Source: a virus. From it: 64,000 bases of DNA. Positions 33,523 to 39,405 of this stretch are shown here, in pieces. The stretch is from the IMG/VR virus record IMGVR_UViG_3300010885_081999, positions 1-64,000 of that record; one strand, given 5' to 3'. Each line of letters starts with the position of its first letter. Within the stretch, counting starts at the first letter, position 1. The position numbers and the translations under genes are program-made. Below the pieces are notes generated by a model, which worked only from the letters and a program-made list of their open reading frames with translations, did not search any database and had not been told where the DNA came from.

Positions 33523-34428
33523 TTATACAGCATCACGACGCACGTGGAGGCTGTCGAACTGAACGACGAGTCTCACTGAGTTGACAGCCCAGCCGAAGGT
33601 CCGAGGAATTTCGGTGGAAAGGTGGGCAAGGAATCGAAGGTCGAGTGTACCGTTCTTCACGGAGTCCGTGCTCCTCAGAAGACTGATGACCTTGAGGTCG
33701 CCATCACGAGGCAAGAAGTGTATCGAAGAGATGCACGTGTCGCTGTGGTAGTAGAACCGCCTCGAGTCGAGTCCTTGTGGCGCTCCATAGGGATTTTTCC
33801 CTGACATCTCGTCGTGGATCACTTCCTCGCACGACTTGAGGATGTCCAAGAAGTACTCGCCTTCGTGGGGATCGTTGAGGATGGAGGGATCCGTGTACTG
33901 AGGTGGGACGTCGAACTCCACGCGTGCCTGCACCTCTTGGTCCTTTGACAGGAAAGTACAGTGTCTAATCGTGTGACCAAACACCCCCGGAGATTGTTCC
34001 GAATATTCCTGGATGTCCCTGCTGACTTCTCGTGCCTGGTCCGACAGGGAAGCGTCCCTCGAGAGGACGAGGACGTTGGGAAGTGCGATGATCTTCGAGA
34101 CCTCTTCCTGGAAGATCCTGTAGAGTTTCAAGAGCGAAGCGTCGTCCTGGAACTCGTCGCCTCGTGAGCGTAGTCTCTCGAGGACGACGTTGACAGGAGG
34201 CATCAGGACGACGAGGAAGTTGTTGAGATCACAGAGCTCTTCGCGGAGGGCAGCTCGATGCTCCGCCTCAGGCCGTCCGTAGAGACGCGCATAGCACAGC
34301 ATCGAGAGGAAGGACCGGTCTTGAATGTTGTACTTGAACTTCGTTTCCTTGTGCAGGGCTGAATAGAGCGAAGTCTTGCCGCTGCAGTCCGGTCCCTCTA
34401 GAATGACGTATTTGATCGGAATGTTCAT
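33523..34428 (-). CDS. Nucleotide kinase fused to a dCMP hydroxymethylase-like (TS fold) domain
   Basis: 301 residues from ATG 34428. The N-terminal half is a P-loop dNMP kinase (E-G-P-D-C-S-G-K-T-S, residues 11-20). The C-terminal part (about 225-300) matches the catalytic core of thymidylate synthase: Cys232, then R-S-T-D at 252-255 and Asp263. Distances Cys to Arg (20) and Cys to Asp (31) equal those of E. coli ThyA C146-R166-N177, but Asn177 is Asp. This change marks dCMP hydroxymethylase in T4. The domain is shorter than full TS. Overlaps the polymerase C-half stop (ATGA). The activity is inferred. Confidence 0.7.
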   Translation of the reverse strand: MNIPIKYVILEGPDCSGKTSLYSALHKETKFKYNIQDRSFLSMLCYARLYGRPEAEHRAALREELCDLNNFLVVLMPPVNVVLERLRSRGDEFQDDASLLKLYRIFQEEVSKIIALPNVLVLSRDASLSDQAREVSRDIQEYSEQSPGVFGHTIRHCTFLSKDQEVQARVEFDVPPQYTDPSILNDPHEGEYFLDILKSCEEVIHDEMSGKNPYGAPQGLDSRRFYYHSDTCISSIHFLPRDGDLKVISLLRSTDSVKNGTLDLRFLAHLSTEIPRTFGWAVNSVRLVVQFDSLHVRRDAV

Positions 34429-36749
34429 GCCATCTGCCTCATCTTGAAGATCGAAGTCGAGAAGCCCCACTGAGGATCGTGTTGTGCCTTGCCTACCCAC
34501 AGGGTGTAGGGTTTGATCTCCTCCTGCGGCGTGCCCCATACTCGAATCCACGCGATCCTAAACTCGTCGTCCATCGCTTTACAACGATAGAACGACTTTC
34601 CGTTCTTCGTCTTCTTCAGCTCGGCGGACGCCATGCAGAACCAGCCGATGCCCTCCGTGCCCGGCGGGATGTCGTGGAGGCGAGGCACTTCCTTCGACGC
34701 GACCTTCTCCATGATCTCGGGTGGAAAGAGGAGGTCTGCGTCGATCGTGGACGTGAGGTCGAAGCGTAGGTTGATCTTCTCGTCACGAGTCCAGTCCTCC
34801 GTTTCTGCGAGCTCCTCGAGGAGGAAGTCGACGATGGGAATCACGGGTTCACCGGCCTTCGCCTTCTTCTTCAGTTGCGATGCAGTGAGACCGTAGAGGC
34901 CCTTTCGGAGGGTCTCGTAGTTCTTTTCCTCGGTGAGTGCGAGGAGGAGCTGCCGATGATTCGCGATGCGGCCGTACTGGAAGTCCTCGAGGGACTCTAG
35001 GCCTTCGATCTGACACAGGGCGGAGAGCACCGTCTTGTTCACCTTGCTGTGTCTCCATTCGCCGGCGTCGTCGTACAGCATCCCCTTGAGGTCCTTATAC
35101 GGTCGGTTGACCATGATCTCCTCGACGGCGGCGTTTCCGATGCCCTTCACCGAACCGAGGGGCGGAACGAAGGCGTTGGCCTCGTCGGAGAAGTCCCACT
35201 GCTTGCCCGAGTAGTTGACGTCGTGCTTCGAGAAGCTGTATCCCAATGCCTTCACCTCGGAGATCACCTTGGAGAGCTCCTTGGGATTGGACGAGGCAGA
35301 CTGCAGGATCGTGGCGAGCCAGTCCTTCTCGTAGTGGGTGTGGAGCCATGCCGCGTAGTAGGAGTCGATGGCATAGGACACGGAGTGGGACTTGTTGAAG
35401 CCGTAGAGCGAGAAGAACTCGATCTTGTCGAACAGCGCATTGGTGATGTCTTCCGAGATTCCGTGGATTTCTTTGGCGCCCTTCACGAACTTCTCGCGGA
35501 GCATCACCTTCTCGCCCGACTTCTTGTCGAGTGTGTCGAGTGACTTCTTCACGAGCGTCTTCCTCATCTGGTCGGACTCGCCCGGTGAGAAACCGCCGAG
35601 CTCCACGGCGAGGCTCATGAACTGTTCCTGGAAGGCGATGAAGCCGCGGGTCACACCGAGCACCTTCTCGATGAGCGGATGGTCGTACTTGATGCCCTCG
35701 ATGTTCTTACCGGCGTCGACGTACATATTGTGGACGTTCGCCTTGAGGGGACCGGGTCGGTAGATGGCAGTGATCGCCGCGAGCTCGTCGATCGTGTTGG
35801 GCTTCGCCTGCATGCAGAACTTCCGGGCTCCGCTGGCAGTGAACTGGAAGACGCCGACGAAGCGACCTTCCTGGTACACGTGCTTCCACACCGCGGGGTC
35901 GTCCTGCTTCACGTATCGACAGTTGAGGTGCTTGTCGAAGAACGCCTTGACGTCGAGGAACGTCGGATCGGGATTGCCCTGCTTCACGAGGATGCGTCGG
36001 ATGCAGTTCTCGACGTCCTTGAGGAGGGTGAGTCCCAGGAAGTCGAACTTGAGGAAGCCGTTGTCCTCGAGGTTGCGGAAGTTCATGCCCTCGGTCCACG
36101 GAGTCTGAAGCTCGCCGCGGACGCCGATGATGGGCATCGTGGCGGACAACTCCTCGGGATCGGCGACGAGGACGCCGCCGGCGTGACGGCCCACGGATCG
36201 GTTCTGCATGAAGAGCGTGCTGATGTGGTCCTCGACCTCCGGGTACTTCTCCATGAAGGCCTTGTACTTCGGAGAGAACCTCATACAGTCCTCGTGCTTC
36301 AGGACGAAGACGGACTTCTCCTGGTCCTCGTCCCGGGCGAGAGGCTCGACCTCCGCTTGGAGCGGGCCTGTCACCTCATTCACCTCCTCGAACGGAATGC
36401 CGTAGATTTTTGAGATGTCCTTGACGAGGGACTTCAGCTTCAGGGTGTTGAAGTTGGACACGGGAATGACCGCGTCCTCACCGAAGAGATTTCGAGCTTC
36501 CTCGATCAACACGTCTCGATCTGCAGCATCAGAGTCGATATCGGGCCACGAAGTATTGTGTGTCAGTGCAAAGTCCTTGCCTACTGTTGACACAAAAAAC
36601 GTATGATCATTAGCAACCTCGATGTCGACGTATTCTTCAGCTTTGTCGCTAAAGATGACTTCTTCGATCTCTACTTCTTCAAACTCGAGAGTTGACAACA
36701 AGATTTTTTGTTCCTTTGTAGTTTCTGAATTCGAGATTTGGAATGACAT
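34425..36749 (-). CDS. dnaE: DNA polymerase III alpha, C-terminal half, with C-intein
   Basis: 774 residues from ATG 36749 (AGGAG 8 nt upstream). The first 65 residues are a C-terminal intein fragment: block F Y-V-D-I-E-V-A-N-D-H-T-F-F-V-S and block G A-L-T-H-N. The extein then begins T-S-W-P-D-I-D-S-D, the palm motif whose two Asp bind catalytic metal. The remaining 709 residues cover palm, fingers, HhH (G-S-V-K-G-I-G) and OB-type domains of DnaE. Trans-splicing with the half at 37639 would give about 1201 residues, the normal DnaE length. Its start overlaps the endonuclease gene by 71 nt. Confidence 0.9.
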   Translation of the reverse strand: MSFQISNSETTKEQKILLSTLEFEEVEIEEVIFSDKAEEYVDIEVANDHTFFVSTVGKDFALTHNTSWPDIDSDAADRDVLIEEARNLFGEDAVIPVSNFNTLKLKSLVKDISKIYGIPFEEVNEVTGPLQAEVEPLARDEDQEKSVFVLKHEDCMRFSPKYKAFMEKYPEVEDHISTLFMQNRSVGRHAGGVLVADPEELSATMPIIGVRGELQTPWTEGMNFRNLEDNGFLKFDFLGLTLLKDVENCIRRILVKQGNPDPTFLDVKAFFDKHLNCRYVKQDDPAVWKHVYQEGRFVGVFQFTASGARKFCMQAKPNTIDELAAITAIYRPGPLKANVHNMYVDAGKNIEGIKYDHPLIEKVLGVTRGFIAFQEQFMSLAVELGGFSPGESDQMRKTLVKKSLDTLDKKSGEKVMLREKFVKGAKEIHGISEDITNALFDKIEFFSLYGFNKSHSVSYAIDSYYAAWLHTHYEKDWLATILQSASSNPKELSKVISEVKALGYSFSKHDVNYSGKQWDFSDEANAFVPPLGSVKGIGNAAVEEIMVNRPYKDLKGMLYDDAGEWRHSKVNKTVLSALCQIEGLESLEDFQYGRIANHRQLLLALTEEKNYETLRKGLYGLTASQLKKKAKAGEPVIPIVDFLLEELAETEDWTRDEKINLRFDLTSTIDADLLFPPEIMEKVASKEVPRLHDIPPGTEGIGWFCMASAELKKTKNGKSFYRCKAMDDEFRIAWIRVWGTPQEEIKPYTLWVGKAQHDPQWGFSTSIFKMRQMA

Positions 36750-37599
36750 CAAACAACTCCTGAGTCTTTAGGCTGTTATAGAAATCTTTCATATAGAGCA
36801 CACGAATGTTCAATCCGTCTGCCTTTAGCACTTCGAGAGCAAGCAAATTCTTCTCAAAGGCATGATCTCTTCTTCCTGCTTTCAGCTCTACATACTCGTT
36901 AGTATCTGGATGAAAGAAGTCCGGTGTGTAGCTTACTTCTGTTTCAGCGACTTTTACGGAGAAGGTCTTGTGTTCGTAATGAACTTCAATTCCTACATGA
37001 TTGCAGTAACGAAAGTAGTCAGCCTCGAGCGAACTTCTGAAGTAGATTCCTAAGTCAGAACGAACGCCAGATCGACCCCTAGAATAGAGTTTGATCTCTC
37101 CGCTTGATTGAGCTGCATACTGACACTTGCGTCCACAAAATCTTACCACAGACGTAGTGTACTTTTCAAAATTACTACCGCAGACTTTACATGGGACTAT
37201 CACTCTTGTTGCAGTTCGACTTGCATCCCTGGCACATGGGAGTGAACAGTATTTACGGTTGCTGCCTTCGATTACTTCGAAATTTGCGCCACATGAACTG
37301 CAAATCAGAGTGACGCGCTCTTTTTCGCTTGACTTAGCATACGACCGATTTTGGCATGCTCTCGAGCAATACTTCGATTGTTTCGCTAAACTGGGCGGTA
37401 ACGTGTAGTCTCTTTCACAGTAGTTGCACTTGAGCGTCATTGATGAAATTGACTTTTCTCTCCTTTTTGCACCTTTGCATTCTTTCGAGCAGTACTTCTT
37501 GTTGCAAGAACTGAAGCCTCCCTGTGTATGGGTGAAGGTGACAACGAAGTCCTTGTTGCAATGTTTGCATGTGAGAGATTTCGTGCTTGTGTTTCCCAT
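36679..37599 (-). CDS. Free-standing homing endonuclease with zinc fingers and PD-(D/E)xK (Vsr-like) domain
   Basis: 306 residues. Four N-terminal zinc-ribbon units (C-K-H-C, C-N-Y-C, C-S-S-C, C-K-V-C, each with a downstream Cys pair) precede a nuclease domain with R-S-S-L-E-A-D-Y-F, Y-T-P-D-F-F and V-E-L-K-A-G, the acidic and E-x-K residues of a Vsr-like fold. It lies between the two halves of a split-intein polymerase, the arrangement described for metagenomic fractured genes. The sequence is clearly AT-richer than its neighbours. CGGAGA precedes the start within a stem-loop (37599-37621). Confidence 0.8.
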   Translation of the reverse strand: MGNTSTKSLTCKHCNKDFVVTFTHTQGGFSSCNKKYCSKECKGAKRREKSISSMTLKCNYCERDYTLPPSLAKQSKYCSRACQNRSYAKSSEKERVTLICSSCGANFEVIEGSNRKYCSLPCARDASRTATRVIVPCKVCGSNFEKYTTSVVRFCGRKCQYAAQSSGEIKLYSRGRSGVRSDLGIYFRSSLEADYFRYCNHVGIEVHYEHKTFSVKVAETEVSYTPDFFHPDTNEYVELKAGRRDHAFEKNLLALEVLKADGLNIRVLYMKDFYNSLKTQELFDVIPNLEFRNYKGTKNLVVNSRV

Positions 37600-37638
37600 G
37601 AATCTTCTCCGTTATGATTCACTGGGATACGTATCATG

Positions 37639-39405
37639 TCACGGAGACTTCTTCTTGACGAAGAGCAGCTTGTCGCCCTTCTTGAGGTCGGTCGTCATAA
37701 CTTCTTTCACTTCGCCAGCGCGACGGACGAGCCAGCGATGGTTTGGCGAGCATGAGAAATTCTCTCTCGAAGTCTTGATGACAGCATTGATGTCATGTCC
37801 TACATCATCTTCCTTGTCGATGACAGACTCATAAGTACCGCCATGCGTGAGGACCTTCTCTCCAAGGCCGAGGTCTTTGATGGGCTTGACTCCATTTTCT
37901 GTCAAGACAAGTGAGTCTTTCTGAAGACAACGGTGCCGACCGAGGAATCGGCTCCACAGGAGACCGTACGGAATCGGATCGATCTGGGTGATGCCGAGGA
38001 GGTAGTTGACGAGAGAACCGGGACCGCTGCCACGTCCGGGTCCGAAGAGGGTCCGCGTCTCGGCACGCTTGAAGATCTTGTACATTGTCACGAAGTACGA
38101 GGCATGACCCAGGTACTTGATGTCGGACAGCTCGGACTTCGCTCGTTCGACGTACTCGGGCTTGTCCACCATTCCCTCGCGGACGAGTCCCTCCTTGACG
38201 AGGTCGGTGAGCTGCTGGAATGCGGTCCTCTCAGGAGTGTCGAGCTTCGGGAGCTTCGCCTTGACATCGACCCAGGTGTCCTCGCAGTTCTGCCAAGCGA
38301 GGTCGTGGGTCCGCTCGATCGCGTCGCGGACCTCCTCCTCAGCACCTCGGTAGAAGTCGTAGGAGTCGTACGACGACTTGAACTCGTCCCACATCTGGGT
38401 GGCGTTCTTGGGATACAGCTCGCACTTCAGGTCCTCGAACTTGGGCAGCGCCGTCTGATCCAGCTTCGCACCCATCCAGCCGAGCTTCTTGTAGAGCTCG
38501 CGGGCCTGCCATTTGGAGGGATCGGGATAGTGGGCATCGCAGGTGGCGATCAGCTTCACGCCGCTTCGTCGAGACAGGTCGATGAGGTACTTGTTCACCA
38601 CGTGCTGCTTCGGCAGCTTGTTGAACTGTAGCTCGAGGAAGAAGTTGTCACGACCGACCGCGTCGGTGAACCTGTCGGTGAGGTTCTGCAGCTCACTGAT
38701 GATCTGATCGGATGTCTTACCGTACGCCTCGCCGCGGAGGATCGTGCCGCTGTAGATGCCGCCGAGGCACGCCGTCGACCAGATGATGCCCTTACCCCAC
38801 TTTCGGAGGAGGTCGAAGTCGATGCGAGGATAGCGGTAGAAGCCGTCCTTGAAAGACGCCTTCACGAGGCGGTTGATGTTCGCGAGACCCTCGGCTGTCT
38901 GGGCGACCGCGACGAGGTGGTATCGACGCTGCCAGTCGGGCTTCTCCTTGTAGTCGTCCGACTTGGTCTCTGCCTCGTCCTCGACGACGTGGCCTCCCGC
39001 CTCCTCTTCCTCTGCGACCTCGTCTGCGTCGACGTCCGTCCGGACCTTCGCCTTCTTCTCAGCTTCGGCCGCGGTCTTCGCGTCCTTGATCGACTGCTTG
39101 TGTGCTTCGTAGTCGAGCTTCCACTGTGCGAGCGAAGTAACAAAGTAGAACTCCACGCCGTAGAGCTGTCTGTACTTCACGCCCTTCTTCTGCAGCTTCT
39201 TTGCCGCAGAATGTGCATGGGCGAGACCGTTGCCGTTGCCGTGGTCGGTGAGGGCCCACGCGTCCTGCCCTTGCGACTCGGAGGTCACGAACTTCACGTG
39301 ATCCTCGGGATACCCGAGGCCGTCGAATGTCGAAAATCCGCTGTGATTGTGGAAGGAAACGAACTTCTGGGGAGGGCGAATCAGATCGACGGGACGATTT
39401 GACAT
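37639..39405 (-). CDS. dnaE: DNA polymerase III alpha, N-terminal half, with N-intein
   Basis: 588 residues. N-terminal PHP domain with F-H-N-H-S near residue 18 and L-T-D-H-G-N, then an acidic insert (E-E-E-E-A-G-G) and the palm region ending W-S-R-F-L-G-R-H-R at residue 492. Cys493 begins a 96-residue N-intein: block A C-L-Q-K-D-S-L-V-L and block B F-S-C-S-P-N-H-R-W (Ser in place of the usual Thr before N-H). The gene stops 40 nt before the endonuclease. The break point falls just before the catalytic P-D-I-D motif, so neither half can polymerise alone. Confidence 0.9.
   Translation of the reverse strand: MSNRPVDLIRPPQKFVSFHNHSGFSTFDGLGYPEDHVKFVTSESQGQDAWALTDHGNGNGLAHAHSAAKKLQKKGVKYRQLYGVEFYFVTSLAQWKLDYEAHKQSIKDAKTAAEAEKKAKVRTDVDADEVAEEEEAGGHVVEDEAETKSDDYKEKPDWQRRYHLVAVAQTAEGLANINRLVKASFKDGFYRYPRIDFDLLRKWGKGIIWSTACLGGIYSGTILRGEAYGKTSDQIISELQNLTDRFTDAVGRDNFFLELQFNKLPKQHVVNKYLIDLSRRSGVKLIATCDAHYPDPSKWQARELYKKLGWMGAKLDQTALPKFEDLKCELYPKNATQMWDEFKSSYDSYDFYRGAEEEVRDAIERTHDLAWQNCEDTWVDVKAKLPKLDTPERTAFQQLTDLVKEGLVREGMVDKPEYVERAKSELSDIKYLGHASYFVTMYKIFKRAETRTLFGPGRGSGPGSLVNYLLGITQIDPIPYGLLWSRFLGRHRCLQKDSLVLTENGVKPIKDLGLGEKVLTHGGTYESVIDKEDDVGHDINAVIKTSRENFSCSPNHRWLVRRAGEVKEVMTTDLKKGDKLLFVKKKSP

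What the first reader, a model, noticed from the sequence alone, without database searches (positions are those of the whole stretch)
34425..39405. Replicative polymerase gene broken by a split intein with a homing endonuclease between the halves
The N-half (37639-39405) ends in a 96-residue N-intein with block A and B; the C-half (34425-36749) begins with a C-intein of at most 65 residues ending in H-N followed by T. Between them lies an AT-rich gene for a zinc-finger, Vsr-like PD-(D/E)xK endonuclease. Joining the exteins restores about 1201 residues and the P-D-I-D-x-D metal site, which the break separates from the upstream palm. Known: fractured genes with split inteins and Vsr-like homing endonucleases were described from metagenomes. 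Here the essential polymerase would depend on trans-splicing.
Basis: partly seen in the sequence, partly recalled or inferred. Interest (0 to 1): 0.8.

Follow-up and report, generated by a model that had tools for sequence, protein, structure and literature searches.

The report
Phage DNA polymerase split by an intein
This phage's DNA-copying enzyme is encoded in two pieces that should be stitched together by a split self-splicing intein, with a DNA-cutting gene between them, and relatives show the same site empty, split, re-fused or carrying other genes, so one can see how such broken genes come and go.

Summary
A phage dnaE (PHP-type Pol III alpha) is broken between TIGR00594 model positions 395 and 396, just before the catalytic PDIDxD. 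The N-half ends in a 96-residue N-intein. The C-half starts with a C-intein of at most 65 residues ending HN|T. Joined exteins give 1201 residues. The record (103.7 kb, possibly a fragment) has one dnaE. A continuous relative of this intein (L076, 78-80% identical) is predicted (pLDDT 95) to have the intein fold. Both halves are under purifying selection: a split and an intact relative (L007/L008) differ at 11 of about 1,170 residues.

One correction: the endonuclease between the halves is not Vsr-like. It has four CxxC...CxxxC units plus a T7-endonuclease-I-type nuclease. Vsr-like enzymes sit at other sites of related dnaE genes.

The arrangement is the known 'fractured gene', with polymerase precedents. 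New is the comparative series: 15 of 86 readable sites are occupied, and the one site is seen empty, split with endonuclease, split without it, continuous, or with other genes between the halves. Related dnaE genes are broken into up to five pieces. Trans-splicing and homing are inferred, not shown.

The parts
37930..39405 (-). N-extein of DnaE: PHP domain + start of Pol III alpha palm, ends ...FLGRHR
   Evidence: PF02811 1.6e-23, PF07733 1.5e-21; TIGR00594 to position 395
37642..37929 (-). N-intein, 96 aa: Cys1 (block A), FSCSPNHRWLV (block B); TGA stop 37639-37641
   Evidence: same segment in 14 more contigs; weak PF13403 0.0094; tblastn finds phage proteins annotated as RNR or DNA methylase, starting at residue 1
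37600..37611 (-). Shine-Dalgarno-like CGGAGAAGATTC before the endonuclease start
   Evidence: best duplex -6.6 kcal/mol, spacer 6
36679..37599 (-). Endonuclease gene, 306 aa
   Evidence: homologues in the same place in L007, L017, L059, L075, L079, L080, L094, L127
37123..37569 (-). Four CxxC...CxxxC finger-like units (residues 11-159)
   Evidence: 15 cysteines checked are invariant in 9 homologues; a sixteenth (C118) was not checked; AF2 model of whole protein, pLDDT 77
36787..37050 (-). T7-endonuclease-I-type nuclease domain (residues 184-271): E192, D227, E238, K240
   Evidence: hmmsearch of A3 against PDB: 1m0d 2.8e-4; residues invariant in 9 homologues
36555..36749 (-). C-intein, at most 65 aa (ATG 36749; alternative TTG starts 36701/36698); conserved part 36555-36689; DIEV..DHTFF (block F), LTHN (block G). 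Its 5' part overlaps the endonuclease gene in another frame
34425..36554 (-). C-extein of DnaE, begins at +1 Thr (36552-36554), to the stop
   Evidence: TIGR00594 from 396; PF17657 1.9e-35, PF07733 96-260
36528..36545 (-). PDIDSD codons (catalytic Asp pair of the C-family palm)
   Evidence: sequence; PDID invariant in alignment A1; role from general knowledge of DnaE

Best explanation
A mobile 'fractured gene' element sits in a phage replicative DNA polymerase gene. Steps: (1) [shown in sequence] three separate reading frames encode N-half+N-intein, endonuclease, and C-intein+C-half. (2) [inferred, strong] the two intein pieces meet, fold into one Hint domain and trans-splice (Cys1 acyl shift, transfer to Thr+1, Asn cyclisation), giving a 1201-residue DnaE whose metal site is joined to the rest of the palm only after splicing. 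(3) [inferred, moderate] the finger-bearing T7-endonuclease-I-type enzyme cuts intein-free dnaE alleles of co-infecting phages at this site, and break repair copies the cassette in. (4) [inferred] the endonuclease is later lost or replaced while the split intein must stay, because the polymerase needs it; occasionally the halves re-fuse.
For: Exact break in the family model. Intein residues conserved in 15 contigs whose N-inteins diverge to about 32-40% identity. The continuous relative L076 folds at pLDDT 95.2, pTM 0.88 and matches the gp41-1 intein (E 2.1e-8, TM 0.80/0.89) and PolB1, NrdJ-1, NpuDnaE inteins. Exteins under purifying selection: L007 (split) against L008 (intact) dN/dS 0.025 (N) and 0.003 (C); window against L002 0.12 and 0.06, the latter near saturation. 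Inteins and endonuclease mostly dN/dS 0.04-0.14 where dS is not saturated; the very close pairs L017/L076 and L130/L131 give 0.3-0.8 on few changes. All 15 occupied sites have T/S at +1, against 29 of 71 empty ones; window, L007 and L039 have T/S where an empty sister has V, with all three bases of the codon different. Patchy distribution: at least 11 state changes, 9 forced by supported branches. Inteins of window and L017/L076 are more alike (77-80%) than their exteins (65-71%). Foreign base composition of the cassette.
Against: No expression, splicing or cutting data. The record may be a fragment, so a second polymerase cannot be excluded. Curated intein profiles miss the split pieces (PF14890 no match; Hint_2 below cutoff). 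The endonuclease tree agrees with the intein tree, so recent horizontal spread rests on the patchy distribution and one group of sequences. T at +1 also occurs in 29 of 71 empty alleles, so T alone does not prove transfer of the flanking codon.
Confidence: 0.85

Rival explanations
1. The two halves work as a non-covalent complex without splicing, as reported for Aeh1 NrdA-a/b and gene 43A/B of Aeromonas phage 25; the intein tails are relics.
For: Precedents of split, unspliced, active phage enzymes (PMC2988022; PMC3653736).
Against: Splicing residues are kept in 15 diverged contigs, intein pN is well below pS, Thr/Ser is always at +1, and the tails would sit next to the catalytic Asp pair.
Confidence: 0.06
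2. The middle gene is a recombination or Holliday-junction nuclease that happens to lie there (T7-endo-I-like), not a homing enzyme.
For: Its nuclease domain resembles T7 endonuclease I and phage Holliday junction resolvases.
Against: Orthologues lie in the same slot of the same intein in nine contigs, with four finger-like units of the kind used for site recognition; it is absent or replaced in others; no other copy in the record.
Confidence: 0.12
3. The split state has been kept because it regulates polymerase activation, not merely because it is a scar of a selfish element.
For: Split inteins without endonuclease persist (L039, L130, L131, and most sites of L089).
Against: 71 of 86 relatives do without it; a continuous form exists (L076); nothing in the sequence points to a signal.
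Confidence: 0.05
4. Assembly or frameshift artefact, or a dead gene.
For: The data come from metagenome assemblies.
Against: Same arrangement in many contigs from many samples; low dN/dS; two in-frame stops and own ribosome-binding site.
Confidence: 0.01

Closest known systems
Fractured genes (Dassa et al. 2009, doi 10.1093/nar/gkp095; not held here, content from memory)
   Same: Conserved DNA-metabolism enzyme broken by a split intein, free-standing endonuclease between the halves, mainly phage
   Different: Here the endonuclease is T7-endonuclease-I-type, not Vsr-like; a same-site series of empty, endonuclease-free, continuous and cargo-bearing alleles is seen. Whether dnaE at this site was among the enzymes of 2009 could not be checked
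PolB of Pseudomonas jumbo phage MIJ3 (PMC6892783); also the Aes123 PolB1 split intein (PDB 9hth)
   Same: Replicative polymerase split by a split intein, with an endonuclease gene between the halves (MIJ3)
   Different: B-family polymerase, HNH endonuclease, different site; here C-family DnaE just before the catalytic Asp pair
Cyanobacterial split DnaE inteins (Ssp/Npu DnaE)
   Same: DnaE split and trans-spliced
   Different: From general knowledge: chromosomal, halves far apart, no endonuclease, different insertion site
gp41-1 intein
   Same: Nearest solved fold to the continuous relative L076 (TM 0.80/0.89)
   Different: 27% identity, helicase host gene
T7 endonuclease I
   Same: E-D-ExK catalytic pattern and similar spacing
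   Different: Here joined to four finger-like units and lying inside a split intein
Aeh1 nrdA/mobE
   Same: Endonuclease gene splits an essential phage gene
   Different: No intein; halves are not spliced

Membership tests
Intein (class 1) | Cys/Ser at position 1 after the N-extein | tested here: met
   Cys1 in all 15 occupied loci plus L094
Intein (class 1) | Block B His (TxxH-like) | tested here: met
   CSPNH(R/K)W in all but L094 (CSTNHRW); His always kept
Intein (class 1) | C-terminal His-Asn followed by Cys/Ser/Thr | tested here: met
   THN|T or THN|S in 15 of 15
Intein (class 1) | Hint fold | tested here: met
   Model of the continuous homologue L076, pLDDT 95, Foldseek to inteins with prob 1.00; the window's own split pair was not folded as a complex
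Intein (class 1) | Curated profile score (Pfam Intein_splicing PF14890) | tested here: inconclusive
   No match in the record; L076 17.4 bits against a cutoff of 35.8; split pieces and short inteins can escape this profile, so it is read as a sensitivity limit and not as a defining failure
Intein (class 1) | Protein splicing activity | not testable with these tools
   needs co-expression
Fractured gene | Conserved enzyme ORF broken in two by a split intein | tested here: met
Fractured gene | Free-standing endonuclease gene between the halves | tested here: met
   own start, Shine-Dalgarno and stop; two in-frame stops upstream
Vsr-like / EDxHD homing endonuclease | E..G...H type motif in place of ExK | tested here: not met
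   Enzymes of this site have Y-E-K (ExK) without the His; the motif is present in enzymes at other sites; profile comparison weak, probability 36%
PD-(D/E)xK nuclease, T7 endonuclease I type | E...D...ExK with T7 endonuclease I spacing | tested here: met
   E192-D227-E238-K240, spacing 35/11/2, invariant in 9 homologues; 1m0d E 2.8e-4; Pfam below cutoff; fold search with the whole enzyme not significant
Homing endonuclease (functional) | Cuts the intein-free allele and promotes its own inheritance | not testable with these tools
   only indirect: patchy distribution
DnaE (C-family Pol III alpha) | PHP, palm with PDIDxD, fingers, HHH domains | tested here: met

The most novel reading that the evidence does not exclude
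One intein site in a phage replicative polymerase passes through a full cycle in nature: empty; split with an endonuclease; split and endonuclease-free; re-fused to a continuous mini-intein (L076); or split with its endonuclease replaced by unrelated cargo (L126: a DNA adenine methyltransferase plus a possible nuclease; L057, L125). Split inteins would then be reversible docking sites for genes, and whole dnaE genes can accumulate them (five pieces in L089).
Probability: 0.45. Interest if true: 0.78.

Novelty: new variant of a known kind. Interest (0 to 1): 0.62.

Why it matters
It bears on three questions that usually lack data: how split inteins arise, whether they can heal, and what happens once the endonuclease is lost. 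One site in one clade offers near-isogenic occupied and empty alleles (L007/L008, 99% identical exteins), a continuous form, bare split forms and cargo-bearing forms. It also suggests a homing-type enzyme with a finger array and a T7-endonuclease-I-type nuclease; the 2018 list of homing endonuclease families (PMC6083498) has PD-(D/E)xK as a class, and I found no paper describing this subtype. The split inteins are candidates for orthogonal protein-ligation tools.

Tried and rejected
Vsr-like assignment: rejected for this enzyme. Foldseek with the endonuclease model: no significant hit, only general PD-(D/E)xK folds (Bax1, TnsA, I-Bth0305I), so not used. My first impression that empty alleles never carry T at +1 came from a handful of loci and was wrong: 29 of 71 do. 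Single-sequence search with the endonuclease found nothing in viral contigs; the alignment found 32 loci. The genome collection gave only one distant finger-region relative, so no cellular home was found. Nucleotide search of isolate phages: no match; the nearest isolate DnaE proteins are about 25-28% identical over the C-half. The label 'R-M system' for L126 was not adopted: the methyltransferase is clear, its 192-aa neighbour has only a weak endonuclease match. A co-conversion tract around the site in L007/L008 was looked for and not seen. Dassa 2009 could not be read.

Full report
OBSERVATION. The N-half (37639-39405) carries PHP and the start of the Pol III alpha domain; the C-half (34425-36749) carries the rest, fingers and HHH. 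TIGR00594 aligns to model position 395 in the N-half and resumes at 396 in the C-half, so the break is exact. Joined exteins measure 1201 residues. The record is a 103,725-bp virus sequence with a single dnaE and a single copy of the endonuclease; it may be incomplete. Other window genes (DnaB-type helicase, exonuclease, RNR large subunit, thymidylate kinase-like, RNA ligase, DNA methyltransferase) fit a phage replication region.

INTEIN. The N-intein starts CLQKDSLVL and has FSCSPNHRWLV; the C-intein has VDIEVANDHTFFV and ends LTHN before Thr. The start of the C-half is uncertain: ATG 36749 (65 intein residues) and TTG 36701 (49 residues) both have Shine-Dalgarno-like sequence upstream; relatives conserve only about the last 45 residues. 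The N-half stop is followed by a second in-frame stop before the endonuclease start. The window's own pair could not be folded together, but the continuous relative L076 (78% and 80% identical in the two pieces) gave a model of pLDDT 95.2 and pTM 0.88 whose best solved matches are gp41-1, NrdHF, DnaB, PolB1, NrdJ-1 and NpuDnaE inteins. By sequence it also finds the PolB1 intein 9hth (9e-5) and gp41-1 (0.004).

RELATIVES. Scans of IMG/VR with the C-half, an extein alignment, the endonuclease alignment and a C-intein alignment give 86 records (window included) with a readable site; 15 are occupied and 71 empty. The set was partly gathered by searching for occupied sites, so 15/86 is not an unbiased frequency. 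On a quick tree of a 215-residue palm/finger segment the occupied state needs at least 11 changes, 9 forced by supported branches. Closest pairs mix states: window with empty L002, L039 with empty L003, L007 with empty L008, supports 100/99 or better. L007 and L008 differ at 11 of about 1,170 extein positions, one of them the +1 residue (Ser against Val), with dN/dS 0.025 and 0.003 in the two halves. That is strong evidence that split copies still make a working polymerase.

STATES OF THE SITE. With the endonuclease between the halves: window, L007, L017, L059, L075, L079, L080, L127, and L094 at a contig end. Split but no endonuclease, halves nearly touching: L039 (start and stop overlap...GATGCTTAA...), L130, L131. 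Continuous mini-intein: L076, where the DNA reads ...TCTCCGTG|TGAGTTCGAAGAG..., that is, the N-intein up to the place of its relatives' stop joined in frame to the C-intein. Other genes between the halves: L057 (an opposite-strand gene matching homing endonuclease PHROG 3339, 7e-51), L125 (opposite-strand gene of unknown type), L126 (D12-class adenine methyltransferase, 1.3e-33, plus a 192-aa gene). In the intein tree L076 sits with L017 (93/93) inside a group with the window (98/99), and L039 and L126 join next (96/95). Parsimony then favours re-fusion of a split intein in L076, but the tree is short and unrooted, so the direction is inference. L079/L080 and L130/L131 are near-duplicates.

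ENDONUCLEASE. Residues 11-159 form four CxxC...CxxxC units; residues 184-271 hold the nuclease. Its catalytic pattern E192, D227, E238, K240 is invariant in nine homologues; the spacing (35, 11, 2) is close to that of T7 endonuclease I (E20, D55, E65, K67, from general knowledge). The alignment profile finds T7 endonuclease I in the PDB (1m0d 2.8e-4); Pfam Phage_endo_I (5e-5) is below its cutoff; PHROG hits include endonuclease 945 and Holliday junction resolvase 9019. The endonucleases at other sites of related dnaE genes instead carry a Vsr/EDxHD-like E..G...H motif. A fold search with its own model was inconclusive.

PLUS-ONE RESIDUE. All 15 occupied alleles have Thr or Ser after the HN; empty alleles have Val 33, Thr 29, Ala 9 (Fisher 1.5e-5, not corrected for relatedness). 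In the three sister pairs the codon differs at all three bases (window ACT against L002 GTG; L007 TCA against L008 GTC; L039 ACA against L003 GTG). This fits transfer of the cassette together with its flanking codon, or entry first into Thr alleles followed by spread; the data do not separate these.

OTHER SITES. Related dnaE genes are split elsewhere: after STA (L010, L026, L038, L089, L126, L130), before the SAPG of GRGSAPG (L039), inside PDID (L009, L089), after FTS (L089), before CFQEQ (L009, L089, L091), after MQNRS (L125, L130) and at GFNK|S (L009, L010, L078, L080, L083, L084, L087, L127). L089 encodes DnaE in five pieces with four split inteins, only one of which holds an endonuclease.

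KNOWN AND NEW. The arrangement is the 'fractured gene' of Dassa et al. 2009 (not readable here; content from memory). Polymerase precedents exist: PolB of phage MIJ3 with an HNH enzyme between the halves (PMC6892783) and the Aes123 PolB1 split intein (PDB 9hth). Endonuclease insertion without an intein, with non-covalent function, is known from Aeh1 nrdA and phage 25 gene 43 (PMC2988022) and is the main rival for the mechanism. No isolate phage or sequenced cell genome in the collections searched carries this element. I rate it a new variant of a known kind.

Noticed in passing
L089 3312-10094: dnaE encoded in five pieces with four split inteins (STA|C, PDVD|C, FTS and CFQEQ sites); only the PDVD site has an endonuclease gene between its halves.
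   Followed up: partly
L009 1041-8707: dnaE in four pieces with three split inteins, each with its own endonuclease gene between the halves.
   Followed up: partly
L009 2484-4075 and L089 5405-7001: Intein splitting the PDID|S metal motif itself; the N-piece appears to hold blocks A, B and F, and the C-piece only about 20 residues with block G, an unusual natural split point.
   Followed up: no
L126 3546-4963: Between the intein halves lie a D12-class DNA adenine methyltransferase and a 192-aa gene with a PDG...EVK stretch (possible restriction endonuclease, unproven).
   Followed up: partly
L076 6596-7018: Continuous endonuclease-free intein at the window's site, 93% identical to the split intein of L017; candidate healed split intein.
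   Followed up: partly
L096 4076-6714: A very distant dnaE with an N-intein at the same position (FLSPGR|C) followed by a frame-broken relative of the same endonuclease; the contig ends before the C-half.
   Followed up: partly
L007 834-1541, L089 2444-3388, L125 1124-2059: Free-standing genes with a similar nuclease pattern (e.g. YTPDF...YEIKG, PDF...FEIKG) lie directly upstream of dnaE.
   Followed up: no
L057 5184-6758: Opposite-strand 524-aa gene (PHROG 3339 homing endonuclease) within 3.7 kb lying between the intein halves.
   Followed up: partly
window 34422-34428: The dnaE C-half stop overlaps the likely start of a thymidylate-kinase-like gene (ATGA), suggesting translational coupling.
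   Followed up: no
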